Positions 23,324 to 28,190 of a stretch of DNA of 64,000 nt are shown here, piece after piece. The notes under the pieces were generated by a model that was not told the origin of the DNA, did not search any database, and worked only from the letters and a program-made list of their open reading frames with translations. The DNA lies in the NCBI RefSeq assembly GCF_000006405.1, contig NW_003205853.1, positions 155,044 through 219,043 on the forward strand. Direction: 5' to 3'. Positions within the stretch are counted from its first letter, which is position 1; every line of letters starts with the position of its first letter. The stretch comes from Perkinsus marinus ATCC 50983 (Eukaryota > Perkinsozoa > Perkinsida > Perkinsidae). The position numbers and the translations under genes were made by a program.

Positions 23324-25230
23324 TCACGCCTTTGGAGCGTTCATATAGACACTAGGATCAACACCAACCAGTACTTGGCCAACAAGGTCCTCGTTCGGTT
23401 GCACTCCACCACCTTGCAATGCATCGTACCTGGACGATAACCCTTCCTATCAGCGATGAGAAATATGTTAACTTTCCTCAACTGAGCTTCAGAGTTTCCT
23501 CACTACTTATACATGTTTACACGTTGACATACGAATTCGTTTAGAAACGTACAGGAGTATATTTCCTCAGAATTTTCATATGCGCTTGACGATATGCATA
23601 TCGCCTTCTTCTATGCATAAAGGCCAAACCCCTCACCATATGTATTGTAACAGCTCCGTGTTGTTCAACGCCAATGACGACTTCACTTCTGTGAACGCTC
23701 TAGTTTCAGCCGAGATATACTGCTCGAGCACAGCAGCCGCAGCCTGCCCTTCTTGCAACTACACAAGGAAGTGAATACCTCATTTTACTCATTCCCAGTA
23801 CTACCGTCCTCATAGCCTGTCCCTGCGCTCTCGACACCGTCGCATTAGCCTGAGCTGCTGCTACTATACGATCAGTTGCCATACCAACCTTAGCCGCATC
23901 TCTCAGATTAATGTTTCCTATAAGAAAAAAAAATCATGAAAATACATATGATATTCACAGATCGTCCGAGTTCCTTGCCCTTGATAATTTCAAGCTAGAG
24001 AATGCCTCTCAACATCGCAGAGTTCACAAACTGAGATTCCATTCCGACTCCTGCAAGAGCATATAACTCCACGAGCTGATCACTTTTACTATTCATAGTA
24101 TACAAATGCAATTAAGTTACTCGGGGAATCCGATCCTCTTACGTCTGGAATGAAATAGTTCACCCCGTAAAAAGAATCCCTCAAGTCTAAACGCTCTTAT
24201 TAGGAACCTTCTTACGAGTGATATTCTGCTTCGTGTTAGCAGCCGTCAATACTGAGTTATAGAACTGATCGGGCAGCTCATCCTCGTTGATCTGCAGCCC
24301 TTGAATGGAAGCATGAAAATCTCTCTAAAAACGACATCTATTTTCAACTGTCATTCCCGAAAAAAATCAAAAAGGTTGAACATGCAAACTGAAGTGAATA
24401 AACTCACAATTTACTCAAGTCACCCGAGTTCGGGTTTCGAAACCGACAAGAAAACTTTTCCCATTACAGCGTCGCAAACTACTTTCCATCTACTCTTATT
24501 ATGCTTACCCTGAAGTGCTCGTCGAGGTATGCCATCATGCCTCGGGCTATCATTTCCTTGCTATTGAAAAACTGGTAGGCGCTAAACTGAGTAGCGTACC
24601 TTCGAAAAAGAGACTTCACAAAAATCAAACGGAAGTAGACTCACTCGGTAGCCAAATGATTCGCAACGAGTTTGAAAGTCGTCTCGAAGTCCTCGCCCAA
24701 CTGCATGTACAGTTCCACTGCCTCATCCGGTATCAACTGGTACCTATCATACCACTCCTGCGCGAACATCCCAATCGAACCAGGATAAGGCAGTCAAGAG
24801 ATCCACTCAAACTATAGACGAAATCGTCTGCTTACTGGAAGGCAACGCCGAGTACGAGCGGTAGACCATCGCTTGTCCTAGCGTGGAGAACATCATACTC
24901 AGAGGTGGAGAACTCGATGGTCCTCACAGTTTTAGGGTAATAAACCTACGGAAAAATACCTCCACTAGGGAGCGAACCCGGGACCTTCCGATTACGAAAT
25001 AAGCAAAGGGCCCAATCGTGTACAACCCTGACTCCGTGTACGGCTTCGATGCAACATGCTTAAATATGTTATCGTACTTCACACCGAGTTCGGTCGCTGG
25101 CACCTTCGAAAAGGACAAGGCCAGTAACTGACAAAGAAAAAACATCACCGTAACCTCACCATAGTTCACTTACCACTATTGCCACTATGAGTAATGGTGA
25201 CCACAACACTACCTTCTGAATGTTATTCAT
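23324..25230 (-). CDS. SPFH/Band 7 (prohibitin-like) membrane protein, paralogue 2
   Basis: Membrane-anchored SPFH scaffold protein, probably mitochondrial by analogy with alveolate prohibitin-like proteins (inference). Start MNNIQKVVLWSPLLIVAIV, an N-terminal anchor. Then ATELGVKYDNIFKHVASKPY followed by GLYTIGPFAYF, and after a 50 nt intron VYYPKTVRTIEFSTSEYDVL. The core continues GLPLVLGVAFQ, IGMFAQEWYDRYQLIPDEAV, YATQFSAYQFFNSKEMIARG and ASIQGLQINEDELPDQFYNS. The C-terminal helix includes GNINLRDAAKVGMATDRIVA and SLALNNTELLQYIW, and the end is GVDPSVYMNAPKA with the stop at 23324. It is tandem with, and similar to, the gene at 26086-28190. Confidence 0.85.
23451..23582. repeat. MITE-like element, family B (copy 5, partial)
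   Basis: Has cagcgatgagaaatatg, ctcaactgagctt and tttcctcagaattttcat. Its 3' terminus is missing or diverged. Lies between SPFH paralogue 2 exons. Confidence 0.6.
24946..24995 (-). other. 50 nt intron made largely of a tRNA 3'-half-like segment
   Basis: Borders are fixed by the SPFH alignment (GPFAYF / VYYPKTV). On the sense strand the intron runs from gtaatcggaaggtcccgg through gttcgctccc to ccgtag. It resembles the 3' side of an anticodon arm, variable loop and T arm. Confidence 0.75.
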
Positions 25231-25267
25231 ATTACAATAGAAGAATCAACTGCTAGTAGACTGATAC

Positions 25268-25990
25268 ACTACTACTACTACCACTACTACTACTACTACC
25301 ACTACTACTACTACTACTACTACTACTACTACTACTACTACTACTACCACTACTACTACTACTACCACTACTACTACTACTACTACTACTACTACTACTA
25401 CTACTACTACTACTACTACTACCACTACTACTACTACTACTACTACTACTACTACTACTACTACTACTACTACTACTACTACTACTACTACTACTACTAC
25501 TACTACTACCACCACTACTACTACTACTACTACTACTACAAGTACTACTACTACCACTACTACTACTACTACTACCACTACTACTACTACTACTACTACT
25601 ACTACTACTACTACTACTACTACTACTACCACTACTACTACTACTACTACTACTACTACTACTACTACTACTACTACCACTACTACTACTACTACTACTA
25701 CTACTACTACTACTACTACTACTACTACTACTACCACTACTACTACTACTACTACTACTACTACTACTACTACTACTACTACTACCACTACTACTACTAC
25801 TACTACTACTACTACTACTACTACTACTACTACTACTACTACTACTACTACTACTACTACTACTACTACTACCACTACTACTACTACTACCACTACTACT
25901 ACTACTACTACTACTACTACTACTACTACTACTACTACCACTACTACTACTACTACTACTACTACTACTACTACTACTACTACTACTACA
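25268..25990. repeat. (TAC)n trinucleotide array, ~720 bp
   Basis: About 240 triplets of act/tac with scattered single-base interruptions (mostly acc). Long reading frames through it (poly-Ser/Val) are artefacts of the repeat. It lies between the stop of SPFH paralogue 1 and the start of paralogue 2, only ~40 bp upstream of that ATG. Confidence 0.97.
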
Positions 25991-26085
25991 AGTACAAGTA
26001 CAACAAGTCTCGAAGATCAGAGAAACTTCGAAGCATAATAATAGCACAAAGAGCGGTACTCGAGAGTATCCTTTCAACCATCCCT

Positions 26086-28190
26086 TCACAGTTCATCATG
26101 AACAGGTCGGCCACGCTGTACTGGTGACGAGCCCAGACCCATAACCACCGACCCTCCACGTTTATTGCCAGTAGCACTCTTCAACTCGAGATACTTGGAA
26201 AATTCTGTTGCGCCCAACTGCAGTTGGTCCGACAAGCGTTTATACCTAGAAAGATACCAACTGCGCACAGCGAAGATTCCCCAATTGTGTCCATTACGCC
26301 GTTGCCTTCGTAGCCTGCTTCGTTCTGAATGCCTCTTGTGTGGCTTCCGCGACGATAACTCTCGCCTTGGCCGCCCCTGTTGCCGTAATATTTGCTATAC
26401 GAGCCTGATCACATCATCATAGCACATCGACCGTTATGGAATCTCCAGACCGTGTCGGGTCTGTCCTTCATAACAGTTGATAACCGCGATGCTCACTAAT
26501 CTCAAGAGTCAGCTGAAACTAACATGTTAATTTCTCCATAATTTTCAAGAGTCAACTCCTCACACTCTATTCTGATTTCCACAACTATGGTGACTAGTAG
26601 AAGGCTCTACCTCATTCTGCGCCAACAGCACTTCGATACTCTGTCTGACTGCCGCCACCTCCTGAGCGTACTCGTTGATAACCTTCTGCTGCTCGGCTAC
26701 CTGCCAGCAGCAGAGGATGCTTGCGTCTGCCATAGAGTCATATACCCACCTGTATGTCTGTAATAGTGTCTTCATAACTAGGTACGAAGTCAGTACGGAG
26801 GATCTGAATACAGTACGAGTGCAAAAAGCCGATATCGGGGTTCGAACCCGGGACCTCCACCTACCTGGAAGAATCGGATCTTGCTGCCGCCACCTTGACT
26901 AATGAAGGTCCTATTCAACACACTCTCCATCGTATCAGATATCCTCTTACGGTCTTGCCAGAAGTCTTGCGGTACGAACCTGCAGTACCACTCGCCCTCC
27001 ATTCTAATCACCATCACCACTACCTCTGAGCCGTATTAGACACGGCGTTCCTTGCCAACAAGCGGTACCGAATCATAGCTGGTTCTAGGCCGCCAAAGGA
27101 CACGTAGACGTCATGAAGGTACTCCAAATCAAATTGGAATCTGAACCACGGGGCGGTAATAGGAAGGGCAAGTCTATTAACGATCGGCATCTACGACGCG
27201 AACTTCCGGATAAAATGCGAAGTTAATTTGCTCGAAAATTGAGTCCGGTCGGGAAGGCCGAATTTTTCAACCCTTGAGGACTTACTGTAGAGAGCAGGAT
27301 ATCGTAATCGGTTGTCCACCACTGTCAGGGTCCGACTTGTCAGCACCAGTCCCTAACACACGAGCTTCCACGACAGCTGCCAACCTTACCCATCCTACTT
27401 GTTTTGACAGTCATCGGTCCAGTGAAGTCGATGGTAGTATAAGTAGCTGGGAACTTAACAAAGGTTTGGAAAGGCCATACCTGAGCATCTCCTAGTGACT
27501 AAAACTCAAGTGGTACTACAGCTTACCACATGCCGGCCGCCTCGATAGACGCCGCCGTCCTCAGGCACCGAACCTGTTATCATATTGCGCAGTATGCCTA
27601 CTTCATTGACCTACAGAGAACCCATCAGTGAGGCCAATGGTCGGTCTAGTACCTCCAGAGTTGCAGTGAAGAAGACCCAGAATAGCACAAAGAAGACCAA
27701 GAGCCCGATGGTGGACCAAATTGCGGTCTTGGTGGACCGGCCACAGTCCCACGTATTCCATTGCCAACCATTGCTATGAGCCTGTCCAGTAGTCGGCTGG
27801 TTACCGAACCCGAAAGCTGCACGTAAACGATCTCGAATCTGATGCATCTAACCTGACCTAATCCGTATCTTACCACCACGAACCTGAGATGCCACATCGG
27901 CCTCCTGTGGCTGCTGCTGCTGCTGTTGCTGTAGTGCCGGCCCATTGTAAGGCATAGGCTGCGGAGGCTGGCCGAAGTGGAAGACATTCCCAGTAGGAGG
28001 AGGCCCTTGTGGAGGGGCCTCAGCTCCACTTGGCCGTCCGCGAACTGCACCGGGTCTGTTAACATTGTATACCAACAACGGGTTCTCTGGTTGCTCTCCA
28101 TTTCCTGAGACACTACCATCACTACTGACGAGCCCTATGGGGCTTACCGGGCCTGTTGGGGTCCTCCCCGGTCGTATTGGTATTACTCAT
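26086..28190 (-). CDS. SPFH/Band 7 (prohibitin-like) membrane protein, paralogue 1
   Basis: SPFH-domain protein with a Pro/Gln-rich N-terminus (GNVFHFGQPPQPMPY, Q6 run) and a single membrane segment AIWSTIGLLVFFVLFWVFF (about 27720). The SPFH core contains GPFQTFVKFPATYTTIDFTG (about 27440), RLALPITAPWFRFQFDLEYL (about 27150), EWYCRFVPQDFWQDRKRISD (about 26980), MESVLNRTFISQGGGSKIRF and ILRTDFVPSYEDTITDIQ. The coiled coil reads VAEQQKVINEYAQEVAAVRQ (about 26690), then ARIANITATGAAKARVIVAE (about 26400) and FSKYLELKSATGNKRGG, stop at 26086. It shares order and motifs with the downstream paralogue. The first exon (ATG 28190) is not securely joined. Confidence 0.83.
26804..26864 (-). other. 61 nt intron with a tRNA 3'-half-like segment
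   Basis: The 5' splice site gtaggtggaggtcccgg runs directly into gttcgaacccc, a B-box/T-arm match. Flanking exons (SKIRFFQ / ILRTDFVPSYED) fix the borders. Confidence 0.75.

What the first reader, a model, noticed from the sequence alone, without database searches (positions are those of the whole stretch)
24946..26864. Spliceosomal introns built around tRNA 3'-half sequences
Introns of both SPFH genes (24946-24995 and 26804-26864) open with GT directly followed by a variable-loop and T-arm sequence (aaggtcccggg-ttcgctccc; gaggtcccggg-ttcgaacccc). Protein homology on both sides fixes the borders. The M20 peptidase intron 8749-8797 and the 145 nt intron 48098-48242 carry the same in antisense. 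Chance recurrence of the B-box in such short introns seems unlikely. It suggests intron gain from, or intron invasion by, tRNA/SINE fragments, or selection for Pol III boxes in introns.
Basis: partly seen in the sequence, partly recalled or inferred. Interest (0 to 1): 0.75.

Follow-up and report, generated by a model that had tools for sequence, protein, structure and literature searches.

The report
Introns made from tRNA tail ends
In a single-celled organism that looks like a shellfish parasite, a share of the very short introns that interrupt genes consist almost entirely of a piece resembling the last half of a tRNA gene, which suggests that new introns were made by copying such pieces into genes.

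Summary
Both SPFH introns and the M20 intron carry a tRNA 3'-half-like element; 48098-48242 holds only a lone B box.

Genome-wide, a 27-nt pattern with five free positions occurs 308 times against 0 for the reversed control. Extrapolation gives roughly 2,400-3,500 copies in 54 Mb. The unit covers tRNA positions 44-73 plus TTTTT; little is conserved outside it.

At 42 of 106 copies a compact sense intron joins open frames, against 16 of 106 in antisense and 11.5% of random sites. Element-introns are about as long (median 51.5 nt, n=18) as introns without it (50 nt, n=226), so the element makes up the intron. Protein homology supports seven junctions. Two glutaminase-like paralogs carry such introns at different positions.

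The Pol III B box is the most conserved part, even in copies selected only on their flanks; T-stem pairing is not conserved. No clear target-site duplication, A box or parent element was found.

Best reading: introner-like intron gain from a tRNA-derived element. The copying mechanism, and whether the B box is still maintained in place, are open. No earlier report was among the papers listed.

The parts
24946..24995 (-). 50-nt intron of SPFH-B (Band_7) gene built around the element
   Evidence: GT..AG, no inserted residue at the junction in 8 of 9 homologs, Pfam across it
24952..24986 (-). sense element (tRNA pos. 44-73 + T run), AGGTCCCGGGTTCGCTCCCTAGTGGAGGTATTTTT; B box has A58 to C
   Evidence: profile score 38.8
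26804..26864 (-). 61-nt intron of SPFH-A gene built around the element (RFFQ|ILRTDF)
   Evidence: GT..AG, joined frame open; my gene finder labelled it exon, and no family match proves the border
26822..26856 (-). sense element AGGTCCCGGGTTCGAACCCCGATATCGGCTTTTTG, B box intact
   Evidence: score 28.3
8749..8797 (-). 49-nt intron of M20 dipeptidase gene (NQD|VFVSRL) holding the element in antisense
   Evidence: PDB match without a gap across the junction; gene finder preferred 8749-8847
8769..8803 (+). element, antisense to the M20 gene; its last 6 columns (A73 and T run) fall in the exon and read ATCTTG
   Evidence: score 30.1
40918..40952 (+). weak element copy AGGTCGTGGGTTCCATTCTCGCAGGTGACACTTTTT overlapping a predicted intron 40942-40984
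   Evidence: score 18.8; border uncertain
15156..15228 (-). genuine tRNA-Arg (CCT) gene, the only full tRNA found in the window (comparison, not a member)

Best explanation
This genome (genus Perkinsus or a close relative) carries a dispersed family of ~35-bp elements, each the 3' part of a tRNA-like gene: variable loop, T arm with the Pol III B box, acceptor 3' strand, discriminator A, and a T run where a Pol III terminator would lie. Roughly a third of the copies examined, after subtracting background, form compact sense introns, mostly ~45-60 nt. In these the element fills the interior, its T run lies where the 3' pyrimidine tract is expected, and short non-conserved ends supply GTR and YAG. 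SHOWN: the family, its boundaries, splice borders by protein homology in seven cases, ordinary intron length, and different positions in paralogs. INFERRED: these introns arose when copies of the element landed in coding sequence and were spliced out at once (introner-like gain). Copies in sense were favoured because the T run makes an immediate 3' splice site; copies elsewhere survive in intergenic DNA or, rarely, in antisense. SPECULATIVE: the strict B box and the T run point to a source that had to be recognised by TFIIIC/Pol III to be copied; the acceptor 5-mer drifted freely among sources.
For: Family: 308 places against 0 control, 1,654 against 16. Boundaries: 108 non-tRNA copies show a block from tRNA position 44 to T78; outside it no position exceeds 0.23 bits. 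In the 37 copies chosen only on a 14-mer, unselected downstream positions show C61 37/37, C72 78%, T 70-81% at positions 74-77. Introns: compact sense intron with open joined frames at 42 of 106 copies, against 16 of 106 antisense and 11.5% of 3,000 random positions (42 of 106 p=1e-13, 16 of 106 p=0.23 against random); among copies not used to choose a locus, 16 of 39 testable. Profile hits per kb and strand: 0.37 in predicted introns in sense (7 hits), 0.03 in intergenic DNA (5 hits). TTTT in 12 of 15 sense-intron-compatible copies against 6 of 22 others (p=0.003). Protein homology across junctions: SPFH-B, P4-ATPase, M20 and two glutaminases against PDB chains, Helicase_C and HATPase_c. Length. 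Different positions in glutaminase paralogs.
Against: No clear target-site duplication (longest shared word 4.32 against 4.14 in shuffles, sd 0.08: a slight excess) and no clear A box (9 of 106 upstream, 6 downstream, 1 upstream on the other strand). No longer parent element was found in the DNA held. No empty site was seen among related loci, though the comparisons would tend to miss one. No RNA-seq was available. Gain against loss in the sister paralog cannot be polarised without outgroup Perkinsus genomes. The gene finder is weak: it labelled the 26804 intron as exon, and its constrained version put only 30 of 120 copies in sense introns (4 of 150 controls). The bare B box is not denser in predicted introns than in predicted exons.
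Confidence: 0.62

Rival explanations
1. The B box is maintained in place: introns and some intergenic sites are solo-B-box TFIIIC binding sites (like ETC sites) with a role in chromatin or in Pol III transcription through genes; the tRNA-like origin is ancient and mobility is not needed now.
For: Copies chosen only on flanks keep GWTCRANNC in 91 of 99 listed, with 8 violations in 693 constrained sites (1.15%) against at least 6.6% mismatches per flank site; most changes at positions 54 and 57 are T54A (8 of 8) and G57A (11 of 14). C61 is kept in 15/15 intron-compatible and 22/22 other copies. Other short introns show no overall excess of element words, though they were chosen by a low profile score. 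Solo B boxes that bind TFIIIC without Pol III are described (PMC5391098, passages).
Against: The SPFH-B copy in the window has lost A58, and 2 independent non-tRNA copy pairs differ in the box. Among 23 pairs with diverged flanks (real tRNAs included) box divergence 2.5% is not clearly below flank divergence 4.7%. It does not explain the rest of the tRNA geometry (A44-C48, C72, A73) or why the element makes up the whole intron.
Confidence: 0.22
2. Element copies invaded pre-existing introns (SINE-in-intron), so the introns are older than the element.
For: Two near-identical antisense copies (L015, L038) sit in predicted 109-110-nt introns, and 22% of the 18 sense element-introns exceed 60 nt. 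Intergenic copies exist.
Against: Sense element-introns have median 51.5 nt (n=18) against 50 nt for 226 introns without it; adding 35 nt to a 45-50-nt intron would give ~80-85. Antisense M20 (49 nt) and L045 (51 nt) introns are also largely filled by the element.
Confidence: 0.08
3. The T-arm-like RNA is an intronic structure or splicing enhancer, selected as RNA.
For: Sense bias in introns; the T run suits a pyrimidine tract.
Against: T-stem pairs 49-65 and 51-63 are formed no more often than in shuffles (0.49 against 0.56; 0.68 against 0.73), so there is no covariation. C61 is equally strict in copies outside introns.
Confidence: 0.05
4. Chance or composition artefact of GC-rich introns.
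For: The bare B box GWTCRANNC alone is only modestly denser in introns (0.53 per kb in sense against 0.40 intergenic and 0.55 in exons), and the loose 13-mer is not enriched in the window.
Against: Zero or near-zero reversed-pattern controls and no hit above profile score 12 in five simulated sets against 84 real, tRNAs included.
Confidence: 0.01

Closest known systems
Introners / introner elements (Micromonas, Aureococcus, fungi, Amoebophrya and others)
   Same: A repeated sequence family whose copies are themselves spliceosomal introns in unrelated genes; introner families range from 5 to over 2,000 copies with median lengths of 30-654 nt, and some have neither TSDs nor TIRs (PMC9860276, passages seen).
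   Different: That paper attributes most families to nonautonomous DNA transposons; a term search of its main text found no 'SINE' or 'tRNA'. Here the unit is a tRNA-like 3' half with a Pol III B box, also present outside introns, with an acceptor stretch that differs between most copies.
Amoebophrya introners
   Same: Alveolate; repeated introns that spread (PMC7789003, passages).
   Different: Non-canonical splice sites and inverted/direct repeats there; here GT-AG and no clear repeats at the ends.
tRNA-derived SINEs
   Same: B box, tRNA-like geometry, many dispersed copies.
   Different: No clear A box, no conserved 5' half or 3' tail region, no clear TSD, unit only ~35 nt.
Extra-TFIIIC (ETC) / solo B-box sites
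   Same: Isolated B boxes with the GTTCRANNC consensus without a tRNA gene (PMC5391098, passages).
   Different: ETC sites are not known to me as intron bodies (recalled); here tRNA positions 44-48, 72-73 and a T run are kept as well. Occupancy untested.

Membership tests
Introner (introner-like element) | Family of similar sequences each acting as a whole intron in unrelated genes | tested here: met
   (SPFH-B, M20, two glutaminases, P4-ATPase, DEAD-box helicase, histidine kinase); for 106 copies
Introner (introner-like element) | Intron gain at sites lacking the intron in close relatives | tested here: inconclusive
   Different positions in two glutaminase-like paralogs; no other Perkinsus genome available to polarise
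Introner (introner-like element) | Signature of transposition (TSD and/or TIR) in many, not all, families | tested here: inconclusive
   TSD: mean longest shared word 4.32 against 4.14 (sd 0.08) in shuffles, only a slight excess. TIR: not tested separately; the block's ends AGGTC and TTTTT are not inverted repeats. Not obligatory for introners.
tRNA-derived SINE | Internal A and B boxes | tested here: not met
   B box strict; A-box-like word upstream in 9 of 106, downstream in 6, upstream on the other strand in 1
tRNA-derived SINE | TSD and 3' tail of a LINE partner or poly(A) | tested here: not met
   only a T run, no clear TSD
tRNA gene or pseudogene | Paired T stem and full cloverleaf | tested here: not met
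   9 of 117 profile hits were full tRNAs by ARAGORN and were removed; the other 108 show no T-stem covariation
ETC / solo B-box site | TFIIIC bound, Pol III absent | not testable with these tools
   needs occupancy data
Spliceosomal intron (GT-AG) | GT..AG borders with protein continuity | tested here: met
   no gap at the junctions (SPFH-B: 8 of 9 homologs); splicing itself not observed

The most novel reading that the evidence does not exclude
A Pol III-dependent introner: a ~35-bp selfish unit consisting of a B box plus a terminator-like T run, copied through TFIIIC/Pol III, whose T run doubles as the 3' splice-site pyrimidine tract. Every sense insertion in an exon would thus become a ready-made intron, having produced perhaps a thousand introns in one genome and leaving B-box (TFIIIC) sites inside genes.
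Probability: 0.3. Interest if true: 0.87.

Novelty: new variant of a known kind. Interest (0 to 1): 0.72.

Why it matters
The source of new introns is a long-standing question. Described introners are attributed mostly to DNA transposons (PMC9860276, passages). A family traced to tRNA 3' halves, with a Pol III promoter box and a T run that serves splicing, gives a concrete route from a small-RNA gene to an intron. It can be tested in existing Perkinsus genomes and RNA-seq. If the B boxes still bind TFIIIC, it also places Pol III factors inside many Pol II genes.

Tried and rejected
Chance: rejected by reversed-pattern controls and simulated sequence. RNA structure: rejected by absent T-stem covariation. 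Origin from today's tRNA genes: the 21 distinct ARAGORN tRNAs (of 37 hits) in the held loci include none ending GC-A plus a T run; only 30 of the 63 scored tRNA places were fetched, and 63 of 4,410 first-look candidates were scored, so the tRNA set is far from complete. TSD and A box: no clear signal. Decayed element in all other introns: in 173 short introns of low profile score, GGTTC 2 against 7.1 expected, GATCC 0 against 5.1, AGGTC 2 against 5.5, but TTCGA 8 against 6.1 and CGAACC 2 against 0.5: no overall excess. In-place selection through copy pairs: 32 pairs with shared flanks (some of them real tRNA genes); 23 with diverged flanks give box 2.5%, N5 5.2%, other 3.4%, flank 4.7%: inconclusive. 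Dispersed copies sharing the same acceptor 5-mer: those checked were segmental copies, except that L082/L121 and L088/L120 share it with unlike flanks, which chance could explain. First gene-finder run found 5 introns and was discarded; the second used a coding bonus. One search failed after saving the profile and one search failed on a parsing error; rerun. Literature: eight searches, of which only the listed papers were seen (1 to 20 per search), listed no report of tRNA-derived introners or Perkinsus introners. A recalled case of a SINE-derived intron in a rice catalase gene was not among the 8 listed and is not used.

Rows dropped before counts: 2 true tRNAs and near-duplicates from the focal set (41 to 37 sites); 9 ARAGORN tRNAs of 117; one chance hit of 100 listed; second members of four near-identical locus pairs and five tRNA sites. 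One search listed 100 of 217 hits. One search listed 100 of 133; 41 of the 133 were fetched with flanks and aligned. The 106 to 120 copies are a mixture: most sit in loci chosen for the 14-mer or the 27-nt pattern, and the set still held tRNAs and duplicates.
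Full report
WHAT WAS CLAIMED.

ORGANISM. The window is part of a 54.46-Mb, 347-contig assembly. A 300-aa HSP90 stretch from it is 94% identical over 89% of its length to Perkinsus olseni HSP90; the other 119 of the 120 hits listed (7,996 found), nearly all unnamed, are 72-81% identical. So Perkinsus is supported, species not determined. The SPFH-B search, by contrast, listed no Perkinsus protein. A small two-strand gene finder trained on the window and 40 loci (226 kb) predicts 252 introns, median 50 nt, quartiles 45-70, donor AAG|GTAAG, acceptor T-rich YAG|G. 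This fits a paper reporting P. marinus introns of 39-1622 bp, mostly under 100 bp (PMC3101222, passages).

THE WINDOW CASES. SPFH-B intron 24946-24995 and SPFH-A intron 26804-26864 are as described, except that 9 and 8 nt separate the intron start from A44 of the tRNA-like part. The SPFH-B junction has no inserted residue in eight of nine homologs; the SPFH-A border has no such support. The 48098-48242 case has only a lone B box.

THE FAMILY. The exact 14-mer GGTCCCGGGTTCGA occurs 133 times, reversed control 0. GGTTCGATCCCTGGNNNNNGCATTTTT with up to 2 mismatches: 308 against 0. GGTCCCGGGTTCGATCCC with up to 3: 1,654 against 16. A 35-column profile built from 39 copies gives 84 hits above score 12 in 226 kb, 46 of them not used to choose a locus, real tRNAs and near-duplicates included, and none in five simulated sets. 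In sequence not chosen for the element I count 4 non-tRNA copies above score 14 in the 64-kb window and 6 in 92 kb around real tRNA genes (3 after dropping duplicates and locus ends). Seven to ten copies in 156 kb extrapolate to roughly 2,400-3,500, with large uncertainty.

THE UNIT. In 108 non-tRNA copies the conserved block runs from tRNA position 44 to 78: AGGTC, T arm GGTTCGATCC, G64 G65, four or five free positions, G71 C72 A73, then TTTTT. Outside it no position exceeds 0.23 bits. The 27 exact hits hold 25 different 5-mers at the free positions. T-stem pairs 49-65 and 51-63 are formed no more often than in shuffles. These are therefore not tRNAs held by structure. G53, C56 and C61 are kept in 108 of 108 copies (profile-selected). 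In copies selected only on a 14-mer ending at A58, C61 is kept in 37 of 37 and C62 in 27 of 37. When only the flanks are fixed and positions 53-63 left free, 217 places are found (control 1); of 99 listed non-chance hits 91 keep GWTCRANNC, and violations are 8 of 693 constrained sites (1.15%) against at least 6.6% mismatch per flank site. GTTCRANNC is the B box named in PMC5391098, where a C56G change abolishes TRE5-A integration (passages); the W at position 54 is recalled. So the B box is the constrained core.

THE INTRONS. Of 41 sites with the exact 14-mer, the gene finder puts 11 in sense introns, 1 in an antisense intron, 12 intergenic (2 true tRNAs), 11 in sense exons and 6 in antisense exons. 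That finder is weak: it calls the 26804 intron an exon. A frame-based test that ignores codon use finds a compact GTR..YAG intron joining 30 open codons on each side at 42 of 106 copies in sense, 16 of 106 in antisense, and 11.5% of 3,000 random positions (Fisher p=1e-4 sense against antisense). Among copies not used to choose a locus it is 16 of 39 testable. In the window itself 1 sense and 1 antisense element fall in the 65 predicted introns; with the missed SPFH-A intron that is 3 of about 66. Removing the element-intron restores conserved protein sequence in a DEAD-box helicase (HRI|GRTGR, Helicase_C E=1e-16), a histidine kinase (NNALKFTPSG|FVRI, HATPase_c 3e-14), two glutaminases (1e-25 and 3e-13) and a P4-ATPase (PDB match E=2e-24, no Pfam family). 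A DEAH helicase, a Ski2-like helicase, a receiver domain and a hydrolase gave weaker matches, below their Pfam cut-offs.

GAIN OR INVASION. Sense element-introns (n=18) have median 51.5 nt, 78% at most 60 nt; the other 226 predicted introns have median 50 nt, 74% at most 60. The element fills the intron instead of lengthening an older one. The glutaminase-like paralogs in L060 carry element-introns at KT|GERV in one and ERE|VNVA in the other, and each is uninterrupted at the other's site. This shows gain or differential loss; outgroups are needed to tell which. TTTT is present in 12 of 15 intron-compatible copies against 6 of 22 others (p=0.003), as expected if the T run acts as the pyrimidine tract. 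Profile hits per kb and strand, copies used to choose loci left out: 0.37 in predicted introns in sense (7), 0.11 antisense (2), 0.03 intergenic (5), 0.13 in exons in sense (15), 0.05 antisense (6); some of the exon hits are introns that the finder missed. The bare B box shows no such contrast (0.53, 0.69, 0.40, 0.55, 0.54; reversed control 0.16, 0, 0.26, 0.13, 0.23).

WHAT IS MISSING. No clear TSD (slight excess of short shared words, 4.32 against 4.14, sd 0.08), no clear A box, no longer parent. Copy pairs were found because both members hold the element, and the alignments would tend to break at an empty site, so absence of polymorphism there means little; the pairs are also too few to test in-place selection. 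The damaged B box in the SPFH-B intron and in L104 shows that an intact box is not needed for the intron to persist.

VERDICT. Best reading: an introner-like family derived from a tRNA 3' half; confidence 0.62. It differs from described introners in source and in its Pol III box; a term search of the main text of the large introner survey found neither 'SINE' nor 'tRNA' (PMC9860276, passages only), and the searches named under Tried and rejected listed no tRNA-type or Perkinsus introner. The main rival is in-place maintenance of solo B boxes (0.22).

Noticed in passing
window 26263-26277 (-), inside predicted intron 26246-26297; genome-wide: A second short repeated motif, ATCTTCGCTGTGCGC, often after A residues: 372 places with up to 1 mismatch against 0 reversed control. 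In the held loci it lies in predicted introns and intergenic DNA, once opposite a predicted exon; it does not look like a tRNA and could be another intron-associated repeat family.
   Followed up: partly
predicted introns of L015, L038, L041, L060: Words GCGCGC (some before TTTTTAC), GCGAAG/CGAAGC and CCCCCC are over-represented in short introns without the tRNA-like element.
   Followed up: no
window 25268-25989: 722-nt (ACT)n array, 95% matching, between the two neighbouring SPFH genes.
   Followed up: no
P0053, aligned to SPFH-B junction: One homolog carries a 30-residue insertion one codon away from the 24946 intron site, perhaps a retained intron in another species' gene model.
   Followed up: no
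L088 and L120: Two paralogous-looking loci with clearly diverged flanks (judged by eye) share an identical 27-nt element core; a lead for in-place conservation.
   Followed up: no
assembly G000: Several locus pairs 92-98% identical over kilobases, suggesting uncollapsed haplotypes or recent duplications.
   Followed up: no
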